64,000 nucleotides of DNA, taken from positions 1,650,501 to 1,714,500 of the forward strand of contig CP030158.1 in assembly GCA_003285105.1 (NCBI GenBank). Reading direction: 5' to 3'. Positions 45,674 through 62,097 of this stretch are shown piece after piece. The notes under the pieces were generated by a model. The model made no database searches. It was given only the letters and a program-made list of their open reading frames with translations, and was not told the origin of the DNA. Numbering within the stretch: position 1 is the first letter of the stretch; every line of letters begins with the position of its first letter. Position numbers and translations under genes: made by a program. This stretch comes from Roseithermus sacchariphilus. GTDB taxonomy: Bacteria > Bacteroidota > Rhodothermia > Rhodothermales > MEBIC09517.

Positions 45674-46183
45674 TCAGCGCAGCAGCGTCATCGAGCGCAC
45701 CGCCTCGAAGCGGCCCATCTCGATCCGGTAGAAGTACACGCCGGAGGCCAGGCGCCCGGCCTCGAAGGTGACCTGCCGGCGGCCCGGTGCCTGCGGGCCG
45801 TCCACCAGCGTGGCCACCTGCCGTCCCATGAGGTCGTACACCGTGAGGCGGACGTGCACGGCCTCGCGGACGTCGTAGCGGATGGTGGTGCGGGGGTTGA
45901 AGGGGTTCGGGTAGTTGGCGTGCAGCGCGAAGCGGTCCGGCAGGTCCGGCGACCCGGTGTCGATGGCGACGCCGGTGTCCTCGCCGGTGTCGATGCCGAC
46001 GAGGTGGCCGGCCGGGTCGAACCGGTAATCGGTAGCCAGGGGGGCCGGGAAGGCCGTGCCGCTGTAGCCTGCCCGCGTGAGCCGGCCCTGCGCGTCGTAG
46101 CGATACTTGACGGTGAACGGCTGGGCCTGGATGGTGCCGGAGAGTCCCAGGCCGAGCAGGAGGAGGACGAGGAGACGAGGCAT
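45674..46183 (-). CDS. Secreted YD-repeat protein with T9SS sorting domain
   Basis: A 169-residue protein. MPRLLVLLLLGLGLSGTIQAQ is a Sec signal. Two YD-type repeats follow (VKYRYDAQGRLTRAGYSG and TDYRFDPAGHLVGID). The last 85 residues are a type IX secretion C-terminal domain: FALHANYPNPFNPRTTIRYDV, VRLTVYDLMGRQVATLVDG and GVYFYRIEMGRFEAVRSMTLLR. It would be carried across the outer membrane by T9SS and attached to the surface. It is 51 bp downstream of the giant RHS gene on the same strand and shares the YD motif with it. Confidence 0.85.
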   Translation of the reverse strand: MPRLLVLLLLGLGLSGTIQAQPFTVKYRYDAQGRLTRAGYSGTAFPAPLATDYRFDPAGHLVGIDTGEDTGVAIDTGSPDLPDRFALHANYPNPFNPRTTIRYDVREAVHVRLTVYDLMGRQVATLVDGPQAPGRRQVTFEAGRLASGVYFYRIEMGRFEAVRSMTLLR

Positions 46184-46234: not shown

Positions 46235-49200
46235 TCAATCGAACAGGCTGTTCAACGTGGCCGAGCCTTCCTGCGGGGTGGCGATGCTCTTGATGTAGTC
46301 TTCCTCCGTCCAGATCGGGCTGTCCGGGTCGCGCCAGGGGTCCAGGATGAAGCGGCGGCCGTCGCGCAGCGTGACGCGGACGAAGTTGTGCCCGAAGGGG
46401 CCGGCCCAGTAGCTGACCGGGTCGAACGAGAGGACGTTGGAGGCGTCGGCGTCGGTGGTGTTGTACCAGTCCATCATCCAGTCCCGCCAGGCCACGCAGC
46501 CATCCCCCAGCGCGCCGAGGCTGAAGAAGTTGAAGACGTTGTTGAGGGCTCCCGTGGCGATGCTGTTGGCCTCGTAGGCGTGGGCTTCTGCGGCCACGGC
46601 AAAGGCGGCGAAGAACGGGTCCGCTGCAATCAACTCTTCGCGAGGCCGTAGATTCGCCCCGGGGTCGGGAGCGGCGGTTGGGCGGGTCACGGTAGAGCCG
46701 GTCACGGGCGCGATGTCGGCTCCGGCGAGGGTGCACGTCCGGGCGACGGCCAGCGGGCTGCCCGGGCTCGTGCCGCCGTTCGTTACGAAGGGGTGGGTGC
46801 TGGGTGAGCGGGCGGATTCCCGGTGGCTGCCGCCGGATGCCGGAGCCGGTGCGCCGGGGCGGCCGGGTTCGGGAGTCAGGCCGCTCGGGTCGGTGTAGCG
46901 CAGGGGGTTGTTCAGCGCGTAGGTGTAGGGGATGAGCGCATCGGGGGCAAAGCTGCGCACGGGGTCGGGCGAGATGAAGCGGCCGCTCCGGGCGTCGTAG
47001 TACCGGGCGCGGAGGTAGTACAGGTCGTCTCCGTCGTCCATGACGCCGAAGGCTCCCTGGAAGGTGAAGCGGCTCGTCGCCGTGCCGTCCTGCGCCAGCA
47101 CCTGTCCGTAGGGGCCGTAGGCGTACGAGCCCACGACGGCGCCGTCATCGTCGGTGAGCAGGAGCACGTTGCCGCGGTCGTCGTAGTGGTAGAACAGGCG
47201 GCGGCCCGTGGCAGCCTCGACGGAGTAGAGGAGCAGCCCGCCGGGGGTGTAGACGTGGTAGCGGGCATCGGCGCCGTTCACCTGTTCGATGGCGACGGAG
47301 GGGCGGCCGAGGGCGTAGTTCCACACGAAGGTCTGCGTCTCCCCGTTCCGGGAGAGGCCGGTGCGGAGGCCGAAGGCGTCGTAGGTGTACTCCGTCGTCG
47401 TCGCGTCCGCGGTGGAGGCCGTCAGGTGCGAGGCCAGGTTCCAGGTGTATGACCGCCGGCCGTCGTCGGTGAGGCGGCCCAGGTAGTCGTACGCGAACGC
47501 CTCGACCTGCCCGGCGGCATCGGCGTCGTAGGCGGCCGAGGCCGGCGCCACCGCCGGCGGCAGCAGGCCGTCGTAGGTGGCCTCGACGACGTCGCCGCGG
47601 GCGTCACGCCGGAGGGTGACGGCAGCGAGCGCGGGTCCGCTGTCGCCGGTCTGCTCGGTGATGGCGGTGAGGCGGCCGTCGGCATCCCGCGTGTAGGTCG
47701 TGACGAGGCCGTTGGGCCGGGCGATGGCGGTGAGGCGGCCGTCGGCGTCGTAGGTGAAGCCCATCGTGCCGCCCAGCCAGTCGGTGACCGTCGCCAGGCG
47801 GCCCTCGGCGTCGTAGGCGTAGGAGACGGGGCCGGGGGGCATCTGGATCTCCGTGAGCCGGTCGGCGGCATCGTAGGTGAGGCCGAGGCCGTTCGAGCGC
47901 GTGATACGCCCGGCGGCATCCCGCTCCAGGCTGACGCCGGTAGCCGAGCGCACCTGCCCGTTGGGGTCGAAGGTGAACGAGATGTCCGTGCCGTCGGAGT
48001 ACGTCAGGCTCGTCAGGTGGTCTGTGGCGTCGTAGGCGAGGTCGATCTGCCCGCTGCCGCCGGGCAGCGTGACGCGGTGGACGCGCCGGCGGGCATCGTA
48101 CGTGTAGGTGGTGGTCCGGCCCAGCGGGTCGACCTCCTGCGTGAGGGCGCCCCGTTCGTCGGTCGTGAAGAGCCAGGTCTGGCCGCCCGGCCCGGTCACG
48201 GCGGCGAGGCGGCCGAGGGCATCGTAGGTGTACGAGGCAGCGGCGCCCCCCGGCAGCGTGGCCGAGGTGACCCGCCCCTGCGCGTCATAGGCGTAGGTGG
48301 TGCTGTTCCCGAGCGGGTCCTGCACGCCGGTGAGCCGGCCCAGGGCGTCGTAGGCAAAGGTCCGGGTGTGCCCTCCGGCGTCGGTCCGGGCGGTCATCTG
48401 GCCCATCGGGTTGGAGGCGAAGGCCGTCGTCAGGCCCAGGGGCGAGGTGATCTCGGAGAGGATGCCTTCGGCATCGACGTCGAGGGTCCAGGTGTGCGTG
48501 CCGTTGCGCATCGAGGTCATCCGCCCCTCGGCATCATAGCCCACGGTGAATCGCTGTCCGTCGGCCCGTGTCAGCGTGGTGGGGCGGCCGAGGGCATCGT
48601 AGCCCATGGTCGTGGTGCGCCCGAGCGGGTCGGTCGTTTCGACGAGCCGGTCCATCGCATCGTAGGCATAGCGCGTCTGTCCTCCGGCCGGGTCGGTCCA
48701 GGCGGTGAGGCGGTTGTTCTCGTCGTAGGTGTAGGTGCGGGTCTGGCCCCGGGCGTCGGTCCAGGCCGTGAGGTTGTCGTTGGCGTCGTAGGTGTAGGTG
48801 CGCGATCCACCGGCGGCGTCGGTGAGGCCGGTCAGGCGGCGGAAGGCGTCGAAGGAGAAGGTCGCCGGGAGGCCGTCGGCGTCCGGCCCGGTGGCCGGCA
48901 TGCCGTCGGCCCGGTAGGTGAAGACCTGTACGTCTCCCCGGGGGTTGGTGCGCGTGAGCGGCTGTCCGCGGTCGTTGTAGGTGAAGGTCCAGGTAGCCCC
49001 GGTGCCGTTGGTGAACGTCGTCATCGCCCCCGCGTCGTTGTAGGTCATGGACAGCGTCGTGCCGTCGGGCAGGGTGAGGCCGGTGAGGTCGTGGAAGGTC
49101 AGGCCGGCCCGGGTGCGGGGCGTGTAGGTGAAGGCGGTGCGGCCGCCCCGGGCGTCCGTGATCGCCGTGGGCCGGCCCGTGGCCGGGTCATAGGCGAACG

Positions 49201-52200
49201 CCATCGTCGCGCCCAGCCGGTCGGTCATGCGTGTCAGGAAGCCCTGGTCGTCGTAGGCCAGCGAGCGCGTTTGCCCGAGCCGGTCGGTCTGGCTGAGCAG
49301 CAGGCCGCCGGGGCTGTACGCGTCGGTCCGGGTGTGGCCCAGCGCATCGGTGACGGTCGTCGTGCCGTCGGCGCCGTAGGTCAGCGTCGTCGTGTGGCCG
49401 AACGCATCGGTCTGCGTCGCCACCCGCCCCTCGGCGTCGTAGGTCTGGGTGACGGCCGTCGTCCCGTCCGGGCGAACGATGGCCGTGAGCAGGCCCGGGA
49501 TGGCATGGGCGAGGTCGTAGCGGTAGGTGGTCGTGTGGCCGCGTGCGTCGGTGACGCGCTCCAGCAGGCCGCCGGCCGTGTAGCCGAACGACACCGAGCG
49601 CGTGCCGTCGCCGACCTCCGTAAGCCGTCCGGCCGCGTCGTAGGCGAAGGTGAGCCGGAAGCCGAGCCCGTCGGTCACCTCGGCCAGGCGGTCGCCGGCG
49701 TCATAGGTCAGCGTCAGGGCATTGCCCCGGCCGTCGGCGATCTCGACGAGGCGGCCGCCGGCGTCGAAGGTGTAGAGGCGCTGCGTCCGCGGATCCCCGA
49801 GGCGGTAGACGGCGCCGTCCTGGACGAGCCGGTAGGGCTGGTTCAGGTTACCCTGCTGTACCCACTCCGCACCGGCCCGGGCAAAGACGAGGATCAGGCC
49901 CCGGTCGCTGACGACCTCCGCCGTCGAACCGTCGACGGTCATCCGCCAGTCGAACGTGTGCGACCAGTTCGGCCCCAGGGCACTCTGCACCTTGCCGTCG
50001 GCCTGCATCAGGCTGGCGTAGTATCGCTGGAAGAAGAGCGGCAGCGGACCGTTCAGGTTCAGGTCCGGCGCGGCCGCGAAGTAATGCTCGCCGGTGAAGG
50101 TGTTGATCGGGTCGGCCACGCTCGTCGCGTGCGGTGTGTTGGCGGACGTCCGGCCGGCGAGCGTCGCCTCGGGGCGCCTCGGCTCGATGCGGGTCTCGGC
50201 CTCGAAGAAGACCTCGGCACCGTCCGCGAAGCCCGAGCCGATGAGCGCGTTGCGGATCGACGGAGCGTACTGCTCCACCCGCGCCGTGAAGCTCACCGTG
50301 CGGCTCGCCCCCGGCTCCAGCGTGCCCAGCTCGCAGCTCACCACGCGGGCCTCCGTGCCGGCAGCGAACGCGCAGCCGTCCGCATGGCTCACGTGCGACA
50401 GCAGCGGGTCCAGCACGTCGGTGACGCTGACGCCGGTGGCCGTCGTCGTACCCGCGTTGGTCACCTCGATGGTGAACGTCACGTTCTCGCCGACGGCCGG
50501 GCTGGTCGGCTCGGCCGTTTTCGTGGCCTCCAGCCGCGTGTCGCTCGGCTGCGGGTCGAGGGTGACGGTGCCCGTGGGGAACTCGTACTTCCCCCCGCCG
50601 GAGCCGACATAGCCGCCGATCGGGATGTCGAAGGCGTCGGTTTTGGGAAAGAGGCCGAGCGTGAGGGTCGTGGAGGCTCCGGGTTCGAGGTCGCCCAGAG
50701 GGACGCGGAGGGCGGGGCCGGGGTCCTCGTCCTCCACGGGCTCCTTGTCCAACCAGGCTCCGATGTAGCCGAGGTGGAGGTCGAGGCCGAGCCGGAAGTA
50801 GCCGTCCGTGGCCGTCTCGGTGCCCCGGTTCTCGATGTCGAAGGAGACGTCCACACGGTGCCCCATCTCGGGCATCGTGTTGGAGGCCCGGGGCATGCCG
50901 TACGGAAACTGCTTCGGCGTGACGACGTCCCCGTAGGCGCCGGCCAACGTCTGGTTGCCGGGCGACTCTGGATCCAGGTCGAGGCGGAGCCGGCCCTTGA
51001 CGTCCGTCGGGATGTCGTCGAGCCGCGGCACGTAGAGCGTGGAGGGTGTGAAGCCCGGGACCGGCACGATGCCGCCCCGGTGCAGCGTGAGAGAGGCGAG
51101 GCGCGAGCCGCCGCCGATCAGGTCCGGCAGATCGTCCGGGGATACCGGCTCGCCGTCGAGCCGGAGCGTCGTGCCGAACGAGAGGTCCAGGACGTTGTAG
51201 TCATAGGTCACGCCGGGGGACCAGTCTCTGTAGTCGATCTGGACGCGGCCTTCGGTCTTGAACACGTTCCCGAAGGCGTTGTCGCTATCGATGCCATAGA
51301 AGGCGACGCTGCTGCTTTCGCCGTCTTCTCCACCCATGAGCCGGAAGGTGTTATAGAAGGATTCGACCGTGCCGACGTTCTGCACGAGGGTGGCATACGA
51401 TCCCCAGCTGCGGATGAGCATGTTCTGTTTGCGCAGCAGGGTGCCGCTGTTGAACCACTCGGGCGTGGGCGCCTTGATGATGCTTCCGCTCAACCGCACC
51501 TCGTCGAAGCCGTTGATCTGCACGCCGTTGCCGAAGCCGGTGGCATCGCCCGAGACGCGGATGCGGGTGTTCTCGAGGTCGAGGCGGTTCACGTTCGTTC
51601 CCCATATCCCGTTGAGGCCGGCGCGGATGGAGATGTCGCCGAGCTCGAGCGTGCCGTAGGGGGAGCCGGAGAAGCCGCCGTCGCTGCGGAGGGCGGTGCC
51701 GTTGGGGGCGTAGAGGCTGCCGCCGCGGAGCCGCACGTGGGCCTCGCCCGGGGCCTCGCCCGCGGTGAACGACGTGCCGACGCCGACGCGCAGGGCATCG
51801 CCGAGGCTTTCGATGCGGGTGTCCTCGATCTCGGTGGACACGGCCGACGTCAGGCGCACGGAGGAGCGGTGGATGAACTCGGTGCGCTGTTTGCCGGCCG
51901 CCGGCGCGAGGCGAGCCGCGGCTTCCTGCAGGGCGGCCACGACGGCCGCGTCGTCCGCCTCGTCATCCTCGTTCGCCTCGACCCTCCGAGCGGCTTCGGC
52001 GCCCGGAGGCAGGTTCGAGAGCACGCTGCGCTGGATGAACACGCTATCGGCCGGGCCGTCCACGAGCAGGGTGGTGGCGAAGGTCGTTCCGGTGGCCCGG
52101 AGCGTCAGGCTGCGGAAGCCGACGTAGTCGGTGCCCATCAGATGGAAGACGTAGTTGTCCGTCTCGTGCTCGGCGGCGTACGAGATCGTCACCGTCGAGG

Positions 52201-55200
52201 AGTCGTCGGTCGTGGAGGTGAAGACCACCGGGTGCTCGGGGGAGGCGCCGGGGATCTCGGGCAGGCGGTAGTTCTGGCCGTCGTAGGTGCCGGGCTCCAG
52301 CGCCAGCACCACCTCGCCGGGCGCGCCGGCGGCCGGGTCGATGCCGGCGCTCAGCAGCACCTCCAGCGCTGCGGGCAGGTCCGGGTACGTGCCGCCCGGG
52401 CCGATGGGGTAGGTGCCGGGGGTGAGCGGGGTGACGGTGCTGGTGTACTGGTACGCCCCCAGGCTCGGCGTGGCCGGGCGCGCGACGCCGTTGCGGTCGG
52501 TCGGGACGAGCGCCGCGAGGTCGGTGCCCTCGTCATCCAGCCACCACGAGTTGGTCGTCAGGTCCGGCGTGCCGGCAAAGGCAGGGAAGACGACGATCGA
52601 GTGCGCATCGGTGCCGGAAGCGGCGCGGAGGTCGGCCAGCGTGGCGAGGGGGCCGTCCGGGCTGCCGGCCAGCGGTCCCGTCCCCGTGTAGAAGGCGTTG
52701 TAGTCCGAGGCGAAGGACGAGAGATCCCGCACGAGCAGCGCATACGCCCCGCCCTCGGTGGCGCAGATGTTGTTCTGCCACGTCGCGTTCGTGTTGCTGC
52801 GGTCCTCGCAGGCGGCGCTCGGGGGCTGCGCCCCGGTGAGGGCGACGCTGTTGTGGGCCAGGTGCGCCCCGGTGACGCCGTTCACCAGGAGGCCTGTGCT
52901 CCGGGTGCCGGGCGCCGCCGCGATCGCCACCACGTTGTTGGCAACGAGGATGGCCCCGGCCCCGGTGCCGCCCAGCCCACTGCTGAGGACCAGGCCCGTC
53001 ATCTCGCCGAACGTGCCTTCCTCGCCGCGCCCGTCGAACCGGATGAGGTTGCCCGTCAGGCGCGTGGCGCCGTTGCAGTCGGTGCAGACGAGGCCCGTGT
53101 AGCCGTCGCCGGCGGGCCGGTCGGCGACGATCTCGTTCCCTGTGATCTGCGGGGCCTCGACGCTGGTGAAGGCGAGCCCGGTAGGCGGCTGGAACCGGCC
53201 CGTGGCCGGGACGAGCGCGACGGTGTTGTGTTGCACGAGCGGCTCCGTGGTGTTCGAGACGGACAGGGCGGTGCCGGCGGTGCCGGGGAAGTGGTTGCCT
53301 TCGATCACCGGCGCTTCCAGGTGCGTCAGCGCCAGGCCGGTCCGGTGGGCGTCTTCGAACGTGTTGTCGCGCACGCGGAGGCCGGGCAGGGGCTGGTCGA
53401 AGCGGCCGGAGAGCCACGCGCCGTAGACGCCGCGGCGGAAGGTATTGCGTTCCAGCGTGAGCCCGTCCAGCGGTACCCAGGCGGCGTCGGTGGCGTCGGC
53501 GCTGCCCAGCAGCACGGCCCGATCCGGCGCGGAGGCCTCCCCCTCCTCAGGTGGAGCGATGCCGGTGAAGACGTTGTCGGCGAGGGTGAGGTCGGCGGTG
53601 CGGCCCGCCAGCAGCACCACCCGGCCGTAGTCGGTCCCGGTAGCCTCGAAGGTGAGGTGGTCCACCGTCAGATGCTGCACGCCCGTCAGGGCCAGGACGT
53701 AGTTGTCCGTTGCGCCCGTCGCGGCGTGGCGGATCGTCACGTCGGCGGCCGCGCCGGTCGATGACGTCAGGCGGGCGGGCCGGTCGGGGCCGGCGCCATT
53801 GATCGGGGCGAAGGTCAACGCGCCGGTGTAGGTGCCGGGCTGGAGGGCGATGGTGACCGGTGCGGCGGCTTTGGCGGGGTCGGGCTGGATGCCGTAGGTG
53901 AGCAGCGCCGCGACGGCCTCGGCGGGCGTGGCATAGTCGCCCCCGCTGCCGACGGTGAGTGTGGTGCCGGCGGCGAAGGGCTCGCGGGCGGCGGTGTACT
54001 GGTAGGCTCCCAGGCTCGGCGTGGCGGGCCGGGCCGTGCCGGCGATGTCCTCCGGGACCGCCGCGCTCAGGTCCGTGCCGGCGTCGTCCATCCAGGGCGA
54101 GTCGGTCGTCAGGTCGGTGGCGGACGTGAAGGCGGGGTAGACGCTGATCGAGTGGGCATCGTAGCCCTCGGCCTGCAGGTCGGCCAGCGAGGCCAGGTCG
54201 GTCTGCCCGTCCAGCACGGCCAGCACCGGGCCGAGCGTGAACAGGTTGTTGTAGTCGGACTCGACGCTGCCGCTGATCTCCAGCGCCGGCGACGCATCCG
54301 TCACCGCACAGATGTTGTTACGGAAGCGCGACGTGCCGGAGAACAGGAACAGCCGGCACGGGCCGTGGATGCTGTTGTGGTAGACGTCGACGTCGGCGGC
54401 GGCCAGCGAGAGGCCGACGGGCGTGGAGAACGTGCCCGGCAGGGTGCGTGCCACGAGGACGTTGTTGGCCACGAGGCCGGTGCCTGTGGCGGTGCCTCCG
54501 AAGGCGCTCCCGAGTTGCAGCGCGGTGCCGCCGGCCACGACCGTGTTGCGCCGGATGCGCGTCGCGCCGCTGAACGTGCCCTGGATGCCCGTGCCGGCGA
54601 CGTCGATCCGGTTGTCTTCGACGACGGCGTTCGTGGCGATCAGGTTGAAGCCGTGCTGGCCGGCCGTGACGGTGTTGGCGGTGATCCGCCCGGCCTCGAC
54701 GGTGGCGAACACCACGGCCCGTCCGGTGAGGCCGGTAAAGGTGTTGCCGTCGATCTCCGGCGCGTGGATCTGGGCGAGTGCGATGCCGTCGGCCAGGTCC
54801 GAGAAGGTGGTGCGTTCGATCGTCAGGCCGGCGGCAGCCAGCGGCTGGTTGGAGGTGGCGAGGTCGATGCCGGTACCGCCCGAGGCGAAGGTGGCGTCGG
54901 CGATGCGCAGGCCGTCGTGCACCTGCAGGCCGGCGCTATAGAGCAGCGCCCGGTCCCGCGAGGCCGAGGCCGGAGCCGGGCCGCGGAAGACGACCCGCTC
55001 GAAGCCGACGTCGGTCATCGTCCCCAGCAGTTCGACGCCACGGCCGTAGGTCGCGCCGAGCGGCTGGATCGTCAGGTCCTGCACGGTCAGGTGGGCGGCG
55101 TTGCTCAGGCGCAGCACATAGTTGTCGTTGCGGTCGGTGGCTTCACGCCGGAGCACCACGTCCGCCGCCGTATCCCCGTCGCCGCGGAGGGCGAGCGGGC

Positions 55201-58200
55201 GGTCCGGCGCGAGGCCCGGGATCGGGCGGAGGGTGAAGGGGCCGTCGTAGGTGCCGGCCTCCAGCGCCAGCGTGCTCGTGCCCGTTCCGGCCTCGTCGAA
55301 GCCGCGCAGTTGCAGGTCGGCCAGGGCCTCCCCGAGCGTCGCGTAGTCCCCCGCGGGGCCGACGCGCAGCGTCGTGCCGGGGGGGATGCGGGTGAGGGTG
55401 CTGGTGTACTCGAACGCACCGAGGCTGGGCGTCGTCGAGCGCGGCGTGCCTTCGGCGTCCTCGTCCACCGTACCCGTCAGGTCCGCACCGGCCCGGTCCA
55501 GCCAGGGCGAGTCGGTGCGCAGCTCGGCGTCGAAGCCGGGGAAGACGGCCCGCGCGTTCAGGGCCAGCCCCGCCCGCTGGAGCGAGTCCAGCGTGGGGTA
55601 ATCGACGCCGCCGAACGTGCGGTCGTCGATGGTCAGGTCGGCGGCGAAGAGGTTGTTGTAGTCGAAATCCGGCAGGCTGCTGCCGAAGCCGCCGAAGTAC
55701 GTCACCGCGTTGCCACGCAGCGGCGCGGCGAGGATGTTGTTCGTGTACGTGCCCCCGCTCCGGTTGAGGTCCAGCGCGGCGCTCTGCGCGGCGGGGGATT
55801 CCACCAGGACGCTGTTGTGGTAGAACGCCATCGTCGTGCTGTTCAGGGCGATGCCCTTGGCGGCGACCGAGGCGGCGGTGGTGATGCGCACCCGGTTGTT
55901 GACGACGAGCCCGGGGTCGCTCTGGGAACTGCTGTTTCGCAGCTCCATGCCGGTGGAGGCGGCACCGGTCAGGGCGATGACGTTCCGGGCGATGAGGGCC
56001 GGGCCGTTGCAGCCGTCGCAGCGCAGCCCGGCACCGCGCGCGTCGAGGCTCATCGTGACGGTGTTGCCCGTGACCTGCGGCGCCGGCACGGCGGCCAGGT
56101 CGATGCCGGCCTCCGCCGCCCGCGTCACGGCGATGGTGTTGCCGTCGATGACGGTGCCGGCGTGCCGCACGAAGAGGCCGCCGCCGACGTCCACGAAGCG
56201 GTTGTTCAGCACGCGCACGCCGAAGCGCGGGGCGTCGAACGAGGGGTTGATGTCGGCGCCGTCCAGGTAGAGCCCGGTGCCCTGCGAGAAGGCGTTGTCC
56301 TCGATGTGGAGCGAGTCCGACGAGGTCAGGTCGAGGCCGTAGATCGCGGCGAGGCGGCCGGAGGTGGTGTTGGTGCTGGAGAGCCCGGTGAAGTCGTTCT
56401 GGCGGAGGGTCAGCGCCGTGAGATGCCCTTCGATCACGATCGCCCGGCCGGTCGGCAGCGCGCCGGCGGCGGGGCGGACGGCGAAGCCCAGGCCCTCGAT
56501 GGTGAGATGGCGTGGGCTGAGCAGACGGAGGATGAACGCATCGGCCGCGTCGTCAGGCATGGTGTGCCGGAGTATGGCGTCCCCCGCGGAGCCGGTGGAC
56601 GACGTCAGCACCAGCGGCCGGAGCGCGTCGAGGCCGGCGAAGGCGGCGAAGGTGGCCGCGCCGTCGAGCGAGTCGGGCAGGACGGCCAGCGTCGTGGTGC
56701 CGGTCTGCGCCGGGTCGAGGCCGCGCACCCGCAGGTCGTCCAGGGCGTCCTGGAGGGAGGCGTAGGTTCCTCCGAGGCCGACGGTCAGGGTCGTGCTGGG
56801 GGCGATGGGCGTCAGCGCCGACGTGTATTCGATGGCGCCGAGGCTGGGCGTGGCGGAGCGCGCCGCGCCGTCGATGTCGGTGGCGATGGTGGCGGACAGG
56901 TCGGTGCCGGCGTCGTCGAACCAGGGCGATGTGGGCGTCAGGTCGAGCACGGCGGCCGCTTTGCCGGCGTCGGTGTCGACGAAGCCGGGGAAGGCAAAGA
57001 CGCCGTGGGCCTCGGGGCCGAGCGCCTGGAGGTCGGCCAGCGTGGCCGGCATCTCGGCGCCGTACTGCGCCAGGGGGATGCCGGCGGTGTAGTAGCCGTT
57101 GTGGTCCGCCGTCACGTAGTTCGGGTTGAAGAGCTGCAGGGCCCGGCCGCGTTCCTCGGCGATGCACAGGTTGTTCTGGAATACCAGCGGGGTGCCGCCC
57201 GCCCGGCCGTTCACCTCACACGCATCGCTGTTGGCGTCGCTGCCGGCGCCGGCGACGGCCGTGTTGTGCGCCACCGTCAGGTTGCGTCCCCACACCTGCA
57301 GCGCGTAGTCCGTCGTCCGGAACGTCCCGGCGGCGGTGGTCACGTAGATCAGGTTGTTCGCCACCAGCGCTTCGTCGGGGCCCGGGCCCCCGTCGGTGTC
57401 CACCTGCAGGCCGGTCTGGCCGAAGCCGGTGATCTCGATGCGGTTGCGGAGGATCCGTGCGGCTCCGTCACAGTCGGTGCAGCGGATCGTGGCGGCGCTG
57501 AAGCCGCCGATCTCGGTGCCGGCGACGGTGTTGTCGGTCAGGAGCGGGGCGATCACGTTCTGGAGGCTGATGCCGATCCGGCTGCCCCGGGCAACCGACA
57601 GCGTGTTCTGCTGCACCCGCGCCGCACCGAAGCCGCTGAGCTGGATGCCCGTGCGCGGCGTCTCGAAGGTGTTGCCTTCCACCACCACGGCGCCCGTCCG
57701 GATGCCCGCCACCTGGAAGCCCTGCAGGTTGATGCCGTGCCCCTGCCGGAAGGTGTTGGCCGCCACGGTCACCGTGTCGAGCGTGGCGCCGCCGGAGCCG
57801 GTATGAAACGCCCCGGCCACCATCGTATAGGTGCCGAAGCCGTCCGCGGGCGCCTCGAAGACGTTGTCCCGGATGGTCACGGCGCGCACGGTATCCTGGA
57901 GCAGGATGCCGCGAGCGCTGTTGTTGCCCAGCAGCCGGAACGTCAGGTGCCGTATCGTAACGAAGTCGGCGCCGTCGAGCGTCAGGATGGGGGTGTCGTT
58001 GAAGGAGGGCTCTTCGTAGGCGAGCACGACGTCGGTCGCGTTGCCGCTCTGTGCCTGGATCGTGATCGGGCGGTCCGCGCTCGGGGCGTTCGTGCCGGCC
58101 CCGTCGATGCCGTCCGTGCCCAGCGAGAGCGTGGCGGTTCCGGTGAGCGTGTAGGTGCCGCTCAGCAGATGGAGCGCCACCGGCCCGCTGACGCCCTGCG

Positions 58201-58351
58201 CGTGGAGGGCGTCGAAGGCGGCCTGGAGCGAGGCATAGTCCCCCCCCGTGCCCACGGTGTAAGTGCCTGCGAGCTGGGCGGAGGCGGCGAACGGCGTCAG
58301 CAGGCCGAGCAGGCCGAGCAGAGCCGGGACGGAGGCGAAGGAGCGGCGCAT
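46235..58351 (-). CDS. Giant secreted beta-helix/RHS protein with candidate C-terminal thiol-enzyme domain
   Basis: One uninterrupted frame of 4038 residues from MRRSFASVPALLGLLGLL...ASAQ, a Sec signal. Five parallel beta-helix modules begin near residues 30, 520, 990, 1460 and 1980, each opened by a phrase like LTVGLGGTYASLQDAL and each of the first four closed by ATPSLGAIEYTS. After a CARDB-like segment (about 2495) comes a DUF11 domain (ATKTAEPTSPAVGENVTF, about 2600), a DUF6531-type start (DPINTFTGEHYF, about 2745), many YD repeats (about 2850-3700) and the RHS core YYLRARYYDARSGRFISPDP. The last 130 residues hold C3952, H3988 (GHNFVRV) and D4004 (ILDPW), a papain/transglutaminase-like triad. 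Function is unknown; adhesion plus a C-terminal effector is plausible. An ATG at 58390 would add 13 residues. The gene has no T9SS domain of its own. Confidence 0.93.
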   Translation of the reverse strand: MRRSFASVPALLGLLGLLTPFAASAQLAGTYTVGTGGDYASLQAAFDALHAQGVSGPVALHLLSGTYTLTGTATLSLGTDGIDGAGTNAPSADRPITIQAQSGNATDVVLAYEEPSFNDTPILTLDGADFVTIRHLTFRLLGNNSARGILLQDTVRAVTIRDNVFEAPADGFGTYTMVAGAFHTGSGGATLDTVTVAANTFRQGHGINLQGFQVAGIRTGAVVVEGNTFETPRTGIQLSGFGAARVQQNTLSVARGSRIGISLQNVIAPLLTDNTVAGTEIGGFSAATIRCTDCDGAARILRNRIEITGFGQTGLQVDTDGGPGPDEALVANNLIYVTTAAGTFRTTDYALQVWGRNLTVAHNTAVAGAGSDANSDACEVNGRAGGTPLVFQNNLCIAEERGRALQLFNPNYVTADHNGYYTAGIPLAQYGAEMPATLADLQALGPEAHGVFAFPGFVDTDAGKAAAVLDLTPTSPWFDDAGTDLSATIATDIDGAARSATPSLGAIEYTSALTPIAPSTTLTVGLGGTYASLQDALDDLRVRGLDPAQTGTTTLAVLPDSLDGAATFAAFAGLDALRPLVLTSSTGSAGDAILRHTMPDDAADAFILRLLSPRHLTIEGLGFAVRPAAGALPTGRAIVIEGHLTALTLRQNDFTGLSSTNTTSGRLAAIYGLDLTSSDSLHIEDNAFSQGTGLYLDGADINPSFDAPRFGVRVLNNRFVDVGGGLFVRHAGTVIDGNTIAVTRAAEAGIDLAAVPAPQVTGNTVTMSLDARGAGLRCDGCNGPALIARNVIALTGAASTGMELRNSSSQSDPGLVVNNRVRITTAASVAAKGIALNSTTMAFYHNSVLVESPAAQSAALDLNRSGGTYTNNILAAPLRGNAVTYFGGFGSSLPDFDYNNLFAADLTIDDRTFGGVDYPTLDSLQRAGLALNARAVFPGFDAELRTDSPWLDRAGADLTGTVDEDAEGTPRSTTPSLGAFEYTSTLTRIPPGTTLRVGPAGDYATLGEALADLQLRGFDEAGTGTSTLALEAGTYDGPFTLRPIPGLAPDRPLALRGDGDTAADVVLRREATDRNDNYVLRLSNAAHLTVQDLTIQPLGATYGRGVELLGTMTDVGFERVVFRGPAPASASRDRALLYSAGLQVHDGLRIADATFASGGTGIDLATSNQPLAAAGLTIERTTFSDLADGIALAQIHAPEIDGNTFTGLTGRAVVFATVEAGRITANTVTAGQHGFNLIATNAVVEDNRIDVAGTGIQGTFSGATRIRRNTVVAGGTALQLGSAFGGTATGTGLVANNVLVARTLPGTFSTPVGLSLAAADVDVYHNSIHGPCRLFLFSGTSRFRNNICAVTDASPALEISGSVESDYNNLFTLGPVLAVLDGQTDLASLADLQAEGYDAHSISVYPAFTSATDLTTDSPWMDDAGTDLSAAVPEDIAGTARPATPSLGAYQYTAAREPFAAGTTLTVGSGGDYATPAEAVAALLTYGIQPDPAKAAAPVTIALQPGTYTGALTFAPINGAGPDRPARLTSSTGAAADVTIRHAATGATDNYVLALTGVQHLTVDHLTFEATGTDYGRVVLLAGRTADLTLADNVFTGIAPPEEGEASAPDRAVLLGSADATDAAWVPLDGLTLERNTFRRGVYGAWLSGRFDQPLPGLRVRDNTFEDAHRTGLALTHLEAPVIEGNHFPGTAGTALSVSNTTEPLVQHNTVALVPATGRFQPPTGLAFTSVEAPQITGNEIVADRPAGDGYTGLVCTDCNGATRLTGNLIRFDGRGEEGTFGEMTGLVLSSGLGGTGAGAILVANNVVAIAAAPGTRSTGLLVNGVTGAHLAHNSVALTGAQPPSAACEDRSNTNATWQNNICATEGGAYALLVRDLSSFASDYNAFYTGTGPLAGSPDGPLATLADLRAASGTDAHSIVVFPAFAGTPDLTTNSWWLDDEGTDLAALVPTDRNGVARPATPSLGAYQYTSTVTPLTPGTYPIGPGGTYPDLPAALEVLLSAGIDPAAGAPGEVVLALEPGTYDGQNYRLPEIPGASPEHPVVFTSTTDDSSTVTISYAAEHETDNYVFHLMGTDYVGFRSLTLRATGTTFATTLLVDGPADSVFIQRSVLSNLPPGAEAARRVEANEDDEADDAAVVAALQEAAARLAPAAGKQRTEFIHRSSVRLTSAVSTEIEDTRIESLGDALRVGVGTSFTAGEAPGEAHVRLRGGSLYAPNGTALRSDGGFSGSPYGTLELGDISIRAGLNGIWGTNVNRLDLENTRIRVSGDATGFGNGVQINGFDEVRLSGSIIKAPTPEWFNSGTLLRKQNMLIRSWGSYATLVQNVGTVESFYNTFRLMGGEDGESSSVAFYGIDSDNAFGNVFKTEGRVQIDYRDWSPGVTYDYNVLDLSFGTTLRLDGEPVSPDDLPDLIGGGSRLASLTLHRGGIVPVPGFTPSTLYVPRLDDIPTDVKGRLRLDLDPESPGNQTLAGAYGDVVTPKQFPYGMPRASNTMPEMGHRVDVSFDIENRGTETATDGYFRLGLDLHLGYIGAWLDKEPVEDEDPGPALRVPLGDLEPGASTTLTLGLFPKTDAFDIPIGGYVGSGGGKYEFPTGTVTLDPQPSDTRLEATKTAEPTSPAVGENVTFTIEVTNAGTTTATGVSVTDVLDPLLSHVSHADGCAFAAGTEARVVSCELGTLEPGASRTVSFTARVEQYAPSIRNALIGSGFADGAEVFFEAETRIEPRRPEATLAGRTSANTPHATSVADPINTFTGEHYFAAAPDLNLNGPLPLFFQRYYASLMQADGKVQSALGPNWSHTFDWRMTVDGSTAEVVSDRGLILVFARAGAEWVQQGNLNQPYRLVQDGAVYRLGDPRTQRLYTFDAGGRLVEIADGRGNALTLTYDAGDRLAEVTDGLGFRLTFAYDAAGRLTEVGDGTRSVSFGYTAGGLLERVTDARGHTTTYRYDLAHAIPGLLTAIVRPDGTTAVTQTYDAEGRVATQTDAFGHTTTLTYGADGTTTVTDALGHTRTDAYSPGGLLLSQTDRLGQTRSLAYDDQGFLTRMTDRLGATMAFAYDPATGRPTAITDARGGRTAFTYTPRTRAGLTFHDLTGLTLPDGTTLSMTYNDAGAMTTFTNGTGATWTFTYNDRGQPLTRTNPRGDVQVFTYRADGMPATGPDADGLPATFSFDAFRRLTGLTDAAGGSRTYTYDANDNLTAWTDARGQTRTYTYDENNRLTAWTDPAGGQTRYAYDAMDRLVETTDPLGRTTTMGYDALGRPTTLTRADGQRFTVGYDAEGRMTSMRNGTHTWTLDVDAEGILSEITSPLGLTTAFASNPMGQMTARTDAGGHTRTFAYDALGRLTGVQDPLGNSTTYAYDAQGRVTSATLPGGAAASYTYDALGRLAAVTGPGGQTWLFTTDERGALTQEVDPLGRTTTYTYDARRRVHRVTLPGGSGQIDLAYDATDHLTSLTYSDGTDISFTFDPNGQVRSATGVSLERDAAGRITRSNGLGLTYDAADRLTEIQMPPGPVSYAYDAEGRLATVTDWLGGTMGFTYDADGRLTAIARPNGLVTTYTRDADGRLTAITEQTGDSGPALAAVTLRRDARGDVVEATYDGLLPPAVAPASAAYDADAAGQVEAFAYDYLGRLTDDGRRSYTWNLASHLTASTADATTTEYTYDAFGLRTGLSRNGETQTFVWNYALGRPSVAIEQVNGADARYHVYTPGGLLLYSVEAATGRRLFYHYDDRGNVLLLTDDDGAVVGSYAYGPYGQVLAQDGTATSRFTFQGAFGVMDDGDDLYYLRARYYDARSGRFISPDPVRSFAPDALIPYTYALNNPLRYTDPSGLTPEPGRPGAPAPASGGSHRESARSPSTHPFVTNGGTSPGSPLAVARTCTLAGADIAPVTGSTVTRPTAAPDPGANLRPREELIAADPFFAAFAVAAEAHAYEANSIATGALNNVFNFFSLGALGDGCVAWRDWMMDWYNTTDADASNVLSFDPVSYWAGPFGHNFVRVTLRDGRRFILDPWRDPDSPIWTEEDYIKSIATPQEGSATLNSLFD

Positions 58352-58687
58352 GGTCGGGTCGGATGGGGATGGACGTGGCAGCAGGGGCAACCCCCTTTCC
58401 TACCCACGCCGGAAACACGCCGCAACGTGCTCATCGGGGAGGCATAAAAATCGACGGGCGACGAGGCCGCCGTCCGGGCCGCCGTCCGGATCGAGGCGTC
58501 CGAGGGATGCGCCGACGGTGAGGGGGGCGGGGCGCCGGACGTGCTTGAAGAAGTGCATCCGCCCCGGTAAGCTAGGACGTAATCACGTTCTACGTACATC
58601 GGATTCGGGTTCGCCACAGGCGTCGATAGCGGCCTCGCGGCGCGGCGAGGTAGCCGGCTCCTGCGCGCGGCCGATCGAGGGCGGGTC

Positions 58688-59281
58688 ATGGATCAGGACG
58701 TCACCCAACTGCTCCTCCAGATGAGCGACGGCGACCGGGAGGCGCTGAACCGGCTCATGCCGCTGGTCTATGACGAGCTGCGGGTGTTGGCGCGGCACAA
58801 GCTGCGCTACGAGCGGGCCGATCACACCTTCGACACGGCCGCGCTGGTCCACGAGGCGTATCTGAAGCTGGTGGATCAGCGCCGGGTGCAATGGCAGAAC
58901 CGGAGCCACTTCTTTGCCATCGCCGCCCGGTCCATGCGGCGCATCCTGGTCAACTACGCCGCCCGGCACAGGGCACAGAAGCGCGGCGGTGGCCGGCCGG
59001 ATCGGCCGCTGGACGAGGTGCCGCCGGCGGCCGTCTCGACGACGTCGGCCGAGGAACTGATCGAGCTGGATGATCTGCTCAGGCGTCTGGCGGTGTTCAA
59101 CGAGCGCGGCAGCCTCGTGGTCGAATACCGGTTCTTCGGGGGGATGACCTACGAGGAGATCGCCGAGGTGCTGGGGGTTTCTCCCGCCACCGTACGGCGG
59201 TCGTGGTCGGCGGCCCGGGCCTGGTTGCAGCGCGAGGTGCGGCACGGCCTGCCGGAGCGCCTGTCGGGGGAGGAGCCATGA
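58688..59281 (+). CDS. ECF sigma factor (kinase-paired type)
   Basis: A 197-residue ECF sigma factor of the group annotated as TIGR02999. It has VTQLLLQMSDGDREALNRLMPLVYDELRVLARHKL for region 2 start, DTAALVHEAYLKLV and HFFAIAARSMRRILVNYAARHRAQKRGG for the rest of region 2, and YRFFGGMTYEEIAEVLGVSPATVRRSWSAARAWLQRE for the region 4 helix-turn-helix. Its stop overlaps the ATG of the kinase gene (ATGA). No anti-sigma factor is encoded nearby; this group is often controlled by the adjacent Ser/Thr kinase. The 336-bp gap to the divergent giant gene shows no ORF I would support and no clear promoter. Confidence 0.92.
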   Translation: MDQDVTQLLLQMSDGDREALNRLMPLVYDELRVLARHKLRYERADHTFDTAALVHEAYLKLVDQRRVQWQNRSHFFAIAARSMRRILVNYAARHRAQKRGGGRPDRPLDEVPPAAVSTTSAEELIELDDLLRRLAVFNERGSLVVEYRFFGGMTYEEIAEVLGVSPATVRRSWSAARAWLQREVRHGLPERLSGEEP

Positions 59282-62097
59282 CGCCGGAACGCTGGCAACG
59301 GATCGAAGCGCTCTACGCCGAAGCGCTGGAGCAGCCCCGCGCGGCACAGGCCGACTACGTCGCCGCCCGGGCCGGCGCCGATACGACGCTGCGCGACGAG
59401 GTGCTCAGCCTGATCGACGCACACTACGCCGATGCCGACTTCCTGGCGCAGCCGGTCGAGGCCGGGCGGCTGGCGGCCTGGCTGGATGCCCTGCCGGAGG
59501 TGCCGGGCCTCCTGCCGGGCGCTCCGCGGCCGGGCGATGACATCGGCGGGTACCGCCTGCTGCGCGTGCTCGGCCGTGGCGGCATGGGGACCGTCTACCT
59601 GGCCGAGCGCCGGACCGAGGCCTTTACGCAGCGCGTGGCGCTGAAGCTGCTGCGCCGCGGCCTGGACACCGGGGACCTGCTGGCCCGCTTCTTCGCCGAG
59701 CAGCGCATCCTGGCCCGCCTCAGCCATCCGCACATCGCCCGGCTCATCGACGGCGGCGTCACCGCGGACGGCCTGCCCTATTTCGCCCTGGAATACGTCG
59801 ACGGCTGCCCGATCACGGATTACGCCGATCGCCACGGCCTGGGGGTCGAGGCCCGCCTGCGGCTCTTCGACCAGGTCTGTGAGGCCGTGCAATGTGCCCA
59901 CCAGCACCTCGTCGTCCACCGGGACCTCAAGCCCTCCAATCTCCTCGTCACCACGGATCCCGGATCGGAGCCGGGGCGGGCGACGGTGAAGCTGCTCGAT
60001 TTCGGCATCGCCAAGCTGCTCCAGCCCGGTCCGGCAGACGCCCCGGTGCTGACGGCCACGGGGGTCCGGGTGATGACGCCGGCCTATGCCGCCCCGGAGC
60101 AGGTGCGCGGCGGGCCGATCACCACCGCCACGGACGTCTACGCCCTCGGGGTCATCCTCTACGAACTGCTCACCGGGCAGCGGCCCTACGACCTGGACGG
60201 GGCCTCGGGGGCCACCATCGAGCGCATCGTCTGCGAGACGTCGCCGCCCCGCCCCTCGACGCAGGCGTCCCGCCGAACCGACGCGCCGCCGGCCGGGCCG
60301 CCGGCCGGCCCGGCCCGCGCGGGGCTCGACCCGGAGCGGCTGCGCCGGCGCCTCAAGGGCGATCTCGACACCATCATCCTCAAGGCGCTGCGCAAAGACC
60401 CGGCCGAGCGTTACGGCACCGTCGATCAACTGCGCGAGGACCTCCGGCGGCACCTGGCCGGCCTGCCGGTGCGGGCGCGGCCGCTGACGTGGCGCTACCG
60501 GACCCATCGGTTCGTGCGGCGGCATCGCGCGCCGGTCGTCGCCGCGGTGCTGATCGCCGCGCTGCTGGCCGGCTTCAGCATCCTCACCGCCCGGCAGGCG
60601 GCCCGGATCGAAACGCAGGCGGCCGTCGTCGCTGAGGAACGCGACAAGGCGGAGGAGGTGGCGCGGTTCCTCGTCTCGCTGTTCCGCAGCGCCGACCCCG
60701 GAGAGGCCCGCGGCGAGGACGTGACGGCGCGAACGCTGCTGGAACGCGGCCGCGCGCGTGTGGAGGAGGAGCTGGCCGGGCAGCCGGCCGTGCAGGCTAC
60801 GATGCTCGGCGTGATGGGAGAGGTCTACGAGGCGCTGGGCGACTACGCCGAGGCCGAGGCGCTCGCCCGGCAGGCGCTCCTGCGGGAGCAGGCCGTCCAC
60901 GGCCCCCGCCATGCCGCCACGGCCACGGCGCTGAACCGGCTCGGCTGGATCCGCCACCTGCGCGGCGACGAGGCCGGCGCCGACTCGACGCTGCGGGCGG
61001 CGCTGGCCCTCCGGCAGGCCGTGCTCGGCCCTGACCACCTCGACGTCGCCCGCACGATGAACGACCTGGCCGTGGTGGCCCAGGCCCGGGGCGATTATGC
61101 CGCTACCGACACGCTGCTGCGCGCGGCGCTGGCCCTCCGGCAGGCGCGTCTCGGCCCCGAGCACATGGCCGTCGCCACGACGCTCAACAACCTGGCCGCG
61201 CTGCGGTGGCGGCTCGGCGACTACGACGGAGCCGCCCGCTACTTCGAACAGGCCCTCGCCGTCTTTCGCACGACCCTCGGCGAGATGCACCCCCGCATCG
61301 CCATCACCCTGAACAACCTCGCCGTGACGTACCAGGTGCAGGGCGACCTGGACCGCGCGGAGGCCCGGTACCGCGAAGCCCTGGCGATGCGCCGCCGCCT
61401 GTTCGGGGACGCCCACCCGGAGGTCGCCCGTAGCCTGAACACGCTCGGTCACCTGCTCACCCGCCGGGGCGACTATGCCGCCGCCGACTCGCTGCTGACC
61501 GAGGCGCTGGCCCTCCGGCGTGCGTTGCTGGGACCGCGCCACCCCGACCTGGCCTCGACGCTCGTGACGCTCGCCGGGCTGCGGGAGGCGCAGGGCCGCT
61601 ACGCGGAGGCAGAGCGGTTGCACCGTGAGGCGCTGGCGATGCGGGAGGCGCTGCTCGGCCATGGGCACGCCGAGGTCGCCGAATCCCTCGGCGGCCTGGC
61701 CCGGCTGGAGCGGCGCCGGGGCCGCCCGGCCGACGCCGCCCGCCTCTATCGGGAAGCGCTGGCCGTGGAACGGCAGGCCCTCGGGCCGCAGCACCCGCGC
61801 GTGGCCGAAACGCTCCGGCAACTCGGGCTGGTGGAGCAGGACCTCGGACACCTCGACGCGGCGGTGGCCCACCTGCGGGAGGCGCTGGCCCTGGCCCGGA
61901 CGGCGCTCGGGGCGGAGCACGCCACCGTCGCCGGCCTGCACGTCGACCTGGCGGCGGCGCTGATCGCGCAGGGGGCGGCGGCCGAGGCCGTCGGGCTGCT
62001 GCGGCACGCCGCCGAGGTCGGAGACGCGGAGACGGCCGCACGGGCCCGGGCGCTGATGGCCCGGATCCCCACGGCCCGCCCACCGGCCGGCGGCTGA
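59278..62097 (+). CDS. Ser/Thr protein kinase with transmembrane segment and TPR domain
   Basis: A 939-residue membrane kinase. The cytoplasmic kinase domain (about residues 88-400) has the glycine loop VLGRGGMGTVYLAE, the lysine in RVALKLLRRG, VHRDLKPSN (H214, R215, D216), LLDFGIAKL and APEQVRGG. One membrane segment (PVVAAVLIAALLAGFSIL, about 419-436) follows. The outer part is about ten tetratricopeptide repeats of the Kinesin-light-chain type (YAEAEALARQALLREQAVHGPRH, YDGAARYFEQALAVFRTTLGEMHP and similar). GGAGG upstream is one of the few clear ribosome-binding sites here. It overlaps the sigma factor gene by 4 bp and probably phosphorylates it or a partner. Confidence 0.94.
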   Translation: MTPERWQRIEALYAEALEQPRAAQADYVAARAGADTTLRDEVLSLIDAHYADADFLAQPVEAGRLAAWLDALPEVPGLLPGAPRPGDDIGGYRLLRVLGRGGMGTVYLAERRTEAFTQRVALKLLRRGLDTGDLLARFFAEQRILARLSHPHIARLIDGGVTADGLPYFALEYVDGCPITDYADRHGLGVEARLRLFDQVCEAVQCAHQHLVVHRDLKPSNLLVTTDPGSEPGRATVKLLDFGIAKLLQPGPADAPVLTATGVRVMTPAYAAPEQVRGGPITTATDVYALGVILYELLTGQRPYDLDGASGATIERIVCETSPPRPSTQASRRTDAPPAGPPAGPARAGLDPERLRRRLKGDLDTIILKALRKDPAERYGTVDQLREDLRRHLAGLPVRARPLTWRYRTHRFVRRHRAPVVAAVLIAALLAGFSILTARQAARIETQAAVVAEERDKAEEVARFLVSLFRSADPGEARGEDVTARTLLERGRARVEEELAGQPAVQATMLGVMGEVYEALGDYAEAEALARQALLREQAVHGPRHAATATALNRLGWIRHLRGDEAGADSTLRAALALRQAVLGPDHLDVARTMNDLAVVAQARGDYAATDTLLRAALALRQARLGPEHMAVATTLNNLAALRWRLGDYDGAARYFEQALAVFRTTLGEMHPRIAITLNNLAVTYQVQGDLDRAEARYREALAMRRRLFGDAHPEVARSLNTLGHLLTRRGDYAAADSLLTEALALRRALLGPRHPDLASTLVTLAGLREAQGRYAEAERLHREALAMREALLGHGHAEVAESLGGLARLERRRGRPADAARLYREALAVERQALGPQHPRVAETLRQLGLVEQDLGHLDAAVAHLREALALARTALGAEHATVAGLHVDLAAALIAQGAAAEAVGLLRHAAEVGDAETAARARALMARIPTARPPAGG

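What the first reader, a model, noticed from the sequence alone, without database searches (positions are those of the whole stretch)
46235..47000. C-terminal Cys-His-Asp domain on a giant RHS protein resembles a transglutaminase or cysteine protease
After the RHS core the final 130 residues are unlike the rest and contain GDGCVAW (C3952), GHNFVRVTLRDGRRF (H3988) and ILDPW (D4004). The spacing of 36 and 16 residues, and the pattern H-x-x-V-x-V ... L-D-P, match the catalytic triad of the transglutaminase/papain-like superfamily. RHS proteins commonly carry a variable enzymatic tip after the core, so this may be an undescribed tip. No cytoplasmic immunity-like gene follows: the next gene is itself secreted.
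Basis: partly seen in the sequence, partly recalled or inferred. Interest (0 to 1): 0.8.

Follow-up and report, generated by a model that had tools for sequence, protein, structure and literature searches.

The report
RHS tip with papain-like enzyme fold
The last ~130 residues of a giant secreted bacterial RHS protein form a probable cysteine enzyme of the papain/transglutaminase kind, belonging to a small sequence family that no public library searched here describes; such enzyme tips are known on RHS proteins, so this is a new family of a familiar kind, not a new principle.

Summary
A 4,038-residue secreted RHS protein (ATG 58351 to stop 46235, minus strand) ends in a 213-residue tail after the RHS core motif PLRYTDPSGL. 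The last ~130 residues carry C3952, H3988 and D4004, spaced 36 and 16. That spacing alone is weak evidence: shuffled tails give bare C-H-D spacing in 31% of cases. Stronger evidence came from relatives and fold. Two distant relatives were found in Ignavibacteria-class genomes: a non-RHS protein of a MAG and a 172-aa stand-alone lipoprotein. The residues invariant in all three are essentially C-x-x-W, H-N, G and L-D-P, which include the proposed triad. A model (pLDDT 72, pTM 0.69) puts Cys at a helix N-terminus, His on a strand and Asp after the next strand. Its best structural matches are nearly all papain/transglutaminase-superfamily enzymes (SseI Z 7.0, NTAQ1 ~6, MOA ~5, vasohibins ~5). No Pfam, NCBIfam, PADLOC or PDB sequence family claims it. 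RHS genes in related genomes end in different tails. Most likely it is a swapped RHS enzyme tip, freed by RHS autocleavage, doing thiol hydrolase or acyl-transfer chemistry outside the producer. Substrate, activity and toxicity are untested. New family of a known kind; moderate interest.

The parts
46235..58351 (-). Giant secreted RHS protein, 4,038 aa from ATG at 58351 (open upstream to a TTG at 58390)
58274..58351 (-). Signal peptide-like N-terminus MRRSFASVPALLGLLGLLTPFAASAQ
   Evidence: sequence, (read by eye, no predictor run)
50711..58273 (-). Right-handed beta-helix / choice-of-anchor repeats (PF13229, NF041518)
   Evidence: outer limits approximate
50267..50533 (-). DUF11 domain (PF01345, E 1.9e-20)
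46877..50113 (-). DUF6531 plus RHS/YD-repeat core ending in the Rhs-associated core (PF20148, PF05593, TIGR03696)
46877..46906 (-). PLRYTDPSGL, the end of the core; in Rhs1 cleavage occurs after the second DPLGL motif
   Evidence: PMC8636562
46646..46876 (-). Linker rich in Pro, Ser, Gly and Ala (GC 77.5%)
46238..46624 (-). Tip domain: predicted papain/transglutaminase-superfamily cysteine enzyme
46496..46498 (-). C3952, proposed nucleophile (C of CxxW), N-terminus of helix 43-57 in the model
46388..46390 (-). H3988, proposed base (HN motif), on strand 78-87 of the model
46340..46342 (-). D4004, proposed orienting acid (LDP motif), just after strand 92-95 of the model
45674..46183 (-). Next gene, ~51 bp downstream: signal peptide-like start, two YD-like repeats and a T9SS-type C-terminal sorting domain (PF18962). 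Not a cytoplasmic immunity protein

Best explanation
The C-terminal ~130 residues are a cysteine enzyme of the papain/transglutaminase superfamily (Cys-His-Asp triad C3952/H3988/D4004) carried as an exchangeable tip on a Sec-exported RHS protein. Shown: the residues, their conservation in two distant relatives, the RHS carrier, and the absence of the tip from the other same-order genomes searched. Predicted by model: the fold. Inferred: the RHS shell encloses the tip, an aspartyl autocleavage at DPSGL frees it, and it then attacks an amide (glutamine deamidation, transamidation or peptide cleavage) in a target outside the producing cell, which would explain why no cytoplasmic immunity gene is linked. 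Step confidences: superfamily fold ~0.85; catalytically competent ~0.75; antagonistic effector rather than other extracellular enzyme ~0.55; glutamine-directed chemistry rather than proteolysis ~0.5.
For: A relative in an Ignavibacteria MAG (L018) aligns over 87 residues (30% identity, pairwise E 5e-13). The shared CxxWxDWxxDW stretch and the tail after DPW lie outside the pattern used to find it. A profile of the two then found a third, a 172-aa lipoprotein (L040, E 6.7e-5 per genome). Invariant residues in all three are C, W, H, N, G, L, D, P plus one N-terminal T in one alignment. C-H / H-D spacings are 36/16, 32/16 and 35/17, near SseI (38/15) and PMT (40/15), from residue numbers in PMC3498931. 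The model has Cys at a helix N-terminus, His on the second strand and Asp after the third. VIA-align: the first 29 rows are all superfamily enzymes, namely SseI (Z 7.0, rmsd 3.1, 98 aligned), NTAQ1 (Z up to 6.0), MOA (5.2) and vasohibins (5.0), with papain-like toxins of CDI type lower (Z ~3). 24 of 113 same-order genomes have an Rhs-core match; the tails read differ, one weakly HNH-like and one with HExxH, and a profile search of the order finds this tip only in the window's genome. A PxxxxDPxGL end is present, as in Rhs proteins cleaved there.
Against: The alignment is shallow: three clear family members plus two looser cousins picked with the help of the His...Asp motif. The best of five models stands alone (pLDDT 72 against 55-61). 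Foldseek itself gives no hit below E 0.001, and Z below 8 can be a mere common arrangement. No coordinates were available, so the triad distances are not measured. Neither relative is an RHS protein and one is a stand-alone lipoprotein, so the domain is not toxin-specific. The first of the two DP motifs of the RHS autoprotease is degenerate here (DPVRS).
Confidence: 0.55

Rival explanations
1. The domain is an active papain/transglutaminase-superfamily enzyme but not a weapon: an extracytoplasmic enzyme that processes or cross-links the producer's own surface proteins, displayed on an RHS/beta-helix stalk.
For: One relative is a stand-alone lipoprotein without RHS (L040); the other is not an RHS protein. 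No immunity gene; the linked gene is a secreted YD + sorting-domain protein.
Against: A C-terminal tip after a PxxxxDPxGL RHS core is the classic polymorphic-toxin position; the tip is absent from 113 other same-order genomes, unlike a housekeeping enzyme.
Confidence: 0.25
2. The domain is a self-processing peptidase that cuts the RHS protein itself, as some Tox-PL1, OTU and caspase domains do in polymorphic toxins.
For: Papain-like releasing peptidases are documented in RHS and other polymorphic toxins (PMC3482391).
Against: Such releasing domains sit before a further toxin domain; here nothing follows the predicted catalytic part except ~35 residues, and the core has its own DPSGL motif.
Confidence: 0.08
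3. It is a catalytically dead transglutaminase-like module that binds or anchors.
For: Inactive transglutaminase domains occur in RHS toxins (PMC3482391).
Against: Those sit N-terminally after the signal peptide and have lost triad residues; here C, H and D are among the conserved residues.
Confidence: 0.07
4. The resemblance is accidental: the H...LDPW hairpin is a common beta-hairpin, seen also in UlaG-type metallo-beta-lactamases, and the cysteine is incidental.
For: Several of the 13 exact matches to the H-to-DPW pattern in the genome collection are metallo-beta-lactamase-like proteins (LGHSSF...LDPW...HGHFDH); bare spacing is common in shuffles.
Against: Those proteins have no matching Cys and carry HxHxDH, which the tip lacks; the relatives share the CxxW block and the fold comparison finds cysteine enzymes.
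Confidence: 0.05

Closest known systems
Tox-PLDMTX (PF15645: SseI catalytic domain, Pasteurella multocida toxin C3 domain)
   Same: Best structural match (SseI, Z 7.0, 98 residues); C-H-D triad with spacing 38/15 against 36/16 here; listed signature C, W, H, D, Q (PMC3482391) and a C-xx-W motif here.
   Different: No match to the Pfam model in the scans made; ~13% identity; those are effectors or dermonecrotoxins, listed without RHS repeats.
Papain-like polymorphic toxin tips Tox-PL1, Tox-PL-2, Tox-PL3, Tox-PLC39 and Cpe1-type toxins (PMC3482391, PMC12136450)
   Same: Same superfamily, same C-terminal position on secreted toxins, some on RHS repeats.
   Different: Different signatures (NC-H-DxQ; C, NxxH, DN; C, [DE]H); no sequence match; some have linked immunity proteins, none seen here; structural Z only ~3 for papain-like CDI toxins.
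Vasohibins and N-terminal glutamine amidohydrolase NTAQ1
   Same: Compact papain/transglutaminase-like folds with Z 5-6 to the model.
   Different: Eukaryotic enzymes, ~10-14% identity, different substrates and no common architecture.
Transglutaminase core (PF01841)
   Same: Cys on helix, His and Asp on successive strands; short C-H and H-D spacing.
   Different: No match to any Pfam transglutaminase model.

Membership tests
Papain/transglutaminase (clan CA-like) cysteine enzyme superfamily | Conserved Cys, His, Asp/Asn in that order | tested here: met
   C, H and D invariant in the query, L018 and L040, and in cousins L026 and L027
Papain/transglutaminase (clan CA-like) cysteine enzyme superfamily | Cys at N-terminus of a helix packed on an antiparallel sheet bearing His and Asp on adjacent strands | tested here: met
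   Secondary structure of model mb5c50afb0cf4: H43-57 with C44, E78-87 with H80, E92-95 then D96; predicted, not observed
Papain/transglutaminase (clan CA-like) cysteine enzyme superfamily | Overall fold similar to solved members | tested here: inconclusive
   VIA-align top rows are almost all members but Z is at most 7.0; Foldseek E above 0.4
Papain/transglutaminase (clan CA-like) cysteine enzyme superfamily | Triad side chains within bonding distance; thiol-dependent activity | not testable with these tools
   No coordinates or assay
Tox-PLDMTX (PF15645) | Match to the Pfam profile | tested here: not met
   hmmscan of query, L018 and L040: no hit at E limits of 10, 1 and 10
Tox-PLDMTX (PF15645) | C, W, H, D, Q signature | tested here: inconclusive
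   C-xx-W, H and D present; whether the W corresponds and whether the Q exists was not determined
Tox-PL1 / Tox-PL-2 / Tox-TGase / PF01841 families | Match to Pfam or NCBIfam profiles | tested here: not met
   No Pfam or NCBIfam hit to the tip at an E limit of 10
RHS polymorphic toxin | RHS/YD-repeat core with Rhs-associated core end followed by a variable C-terminal domain | tested here: met
   PF05593 364.7 bits, TIGR03696 62.3 bits; same-order RHS proteins have other tails
RHS polymorphic toxin | Aspartyl autocleavage motif DPxGL at the end of the core | tested here: inconclusive
   Second motif DPSGL present, first motif degenerate (DPVRS), Asp to Asp 25 residues
RHS polymorphic toxin | Cognate immunity gene downstream | tested here: not met
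   Next gene is secreted with a sorting domain; beyond it convergent metabolic genes. Some toxin families also lack one (PMC3482391)
RHS polymorphic toxin | Toxicity of the tip | not testable with these tools
   Needs an expression assay

The most novel reading that the evidence does not exclude
A previously undescribed family of secreted papain/transglutaminase-like acyl enzymes, shared by a stand-alone lipoprotein in an Ignavibacteria-class genome and an RHS tip, showing how an ordinary extracytoplasmic enzyme is recruited into an RHS delivery protein, possibly with glutamine-deamidating or cross-linking activity on surface proteins.
Probability: 0.3. Interest if true: 0.55.

Novelty: new variant of a known kind. 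Interest (0 to 1): 0.42.

Why it matters
RHS proteins are a major route by which bacteria deliver enzymes to other cells, and each unrecognised tip is an enzyme with unknown target. This one defines a small Cys-His-Asp family with a testable active site, absent from the profile libraries searched, and with a free-standing lipoprotein relative that may show what the enzyme does outside RHS proteins.

Tried and rejected
Single-sequence and profile searches that found nothing real: 99 and 394 genomes, viral contigs, plasmids, phages, PDB sequences. The weak hits L010, L011 and L013 are an SDR enzyme and unrelated ORFs; L016 and L048 are amidohydrolase- and metallo-beta-lactamase-like proteins. 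Alignments A1-A3 contained invented variants and served only as degenerate search probes; no conclusion rests on them. A profile search of PDB with A8 hit only designed propellers (Cake) and chance matches. The BFVD search gave nothing. L022 (Peribacteria) shares the H...DPW part but its Cys could not be aligned, so it was dropped. Cousins L026 and L027 are only probable (hhalign probability 69%, biased by the motif that found them). Broader genome searches with A5 in the same order, the Ignavibacteria order, its phylum and the phylum of L019's genome (a Bryobacteraceae MAG) added no further members. Two paper searches for RHS tips of this kind in this lineage gave nothing on point.

Full report
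What is there. The minus-strand ORF 46235..58390 encodes a 4,038-residue protein from the ATG at 58351 (4,051 codons from an upstream TTG). It has a signal peptide-like start, a long right-handed beta-helix region, a DUF11 domain, DUF6531 and about a thousand residues of RHS/YD repeats ending in the Rhs-associated core. It is the only protein in its genome with RHS-repeat matches at the threshold used. The core ends PLRYTDPSGL, of the PxxxxDPxGL form; Photorhabdus Rhs1 cuts itself after the second of two DPLGL motifs, and the first of the two motifs is degenerate here (PMC8636562). After it come about 80 residues of low-complexity linker and about 130 residues unlike the rest: the tail has 2 Cys where the preceding ~1,088 residues have none, more Trp, Phe, Asn and Lys, and the tip has GC of 65.7% against 71.4%.

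Is the triad more than chance? Bare C-H-D spacing, however, turns up in 31% of shuffled tails and C-H-DP in 4.7%, so the spacing alone proves little. The deciding evidence is conservation. No relative was found by ordinary sequence search. A DNA pattern built on H-x-[FYW]-x-x-x...G-x-x-[FY]-x-x-D-P-W gave 13 matches in the genome collection. Several are metallo-beta-lactamase-like proteins with a similar hairpin, which shows that this half of the motif is not specific. One match, in an Ignavibacteria MAG (L018), is a true relative: 30% identity over 87 residues, E 5e-13 in a pairwise comparison, including CDEWMDWAADW against CVAWRDWMMDW and the segment after DPW, neither of which was in the pattern. 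A two-sequence profile then found a third member in a genome of the same class (E 6.7e-5): a 172-residue lipoprotein with CADW, HNF, LDPF and YTEEEF. Across the three, the invariant residues are C, W, H, N, G, L, D, P, plus a Thr in one alignment.

Fold. An alignment of the tip with the two relatives and two looser cousins from a Burkholderiales MAG gave a model with pLDDT 72 and pTM 0.69; the ten-residue blocks that hold Cys, His and Asp average between 66 and 91. C44 of the model starts helix 43-57, H80 lies on strand 78-87 and D96 follows strand 92-95. Foldseek found nothing below E 0.001. VIA-align, re-scoring Foldseek's candidates, put SseI first (Z 7.0, rmsd 3.1, 98 residues), then NTAQ1, MOA and vasohibins; the first 29 rows and all but two of the first 35 are papain/transglutaminase-superfamily enzymes, and C39, viral deubiquitinase and papain-like CDI toxin structures appear lower. 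Single Z values this size can be accidental; the uniform identity of the top rows is the argument. SseI's published triad C178/H216/D231 has spacing 38/15, PMT's 40/15 (PMC3498931); here it is 36/16. I could not read coordinates, so triad closeness is inferred from secondary structure, not measured.

Surroundings. The next gene on the same strand, about 51 bp on, is a small secreted protein with two YD-like repeats and a T9SS-type sorting domain; beyond it lie convergent metabolic genes. Nothing looks like a cytoplasmic immunity protein. Rhs-core matches occur in 24 of 113 genomes searched in the same order. The tails read differ from this one: one is weakly HNH-like and one carries an HExxH motif. 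A profile search of 114 genomes of the order finds this tip only in the window's own genome. That pattern fits an exchanged tip.

Interpretation. The best reading is a swapped RHS enzyme tip: a thiol enzyme of the papain/transglutaminase superfamily, freed by RHS autocleavage and acting on an amide in a target outside the cell. The nearest structural relative belongs to a family with glutamine deamidases (Tox-PLDMTX), but the Pfam test for that family is not met, so I do not file it there. A non-toxic surface enzyme is the main rival, because the relatives are a lipoprotein and a non-RHS protein. A survey of polymorphic toxins already lists papain-like tips on RHS proteins and transglutaminase-type toxin domains (PMC3482391), so the finding is a new family of a known kind.

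Noticed in passing
45674-46183 (-): A 169-aa secreted protein with two YD-like repeats directly joined to a T9SS type-A-like sorting domain follows the giant RHS gene by about 51 bp; the giant itself has no such domain. It could anchor, cap or be a leftover C-terminus of the RHS protein.
   Followed up: partly
L040 (whole-genome handle G537 C21, ORF from 1237): Stand-alone lipoprotein version of the tip domain, with a further GxxHxTxW...PGD stretch partly shared with L018 but absent from the RHS tip.
   Followed up: partly
L026 and L027: Two paralogous ~360-aa open frames in one Burkholderiales MAG with C...H...DPW triads of the same kind and, where tested, no Pfam or NCBIfam hit; possibly another undescribed family.
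   Followed up: partly
L066, L079, L068-L070, L065 tails: RHS proteins in related genomes end in different tails, including a weakly HNH-like one (L066), one with HExxH (L079), and a recurring 237-241 aa tail of unknown function (L065, L068-L070).
   Followed up: partly
59203-62097 (+): A protein kinase joined to a long TPR array lies divergently upstream of the giant gene.
   Followed up: no
50711-58273 (-): The N-terminal ~2,500 residues are a multi-unit right-handed beta-helix array with choice-of-anchor motifs, a very long stalk ahead of the RHS core.
   Followed up: no
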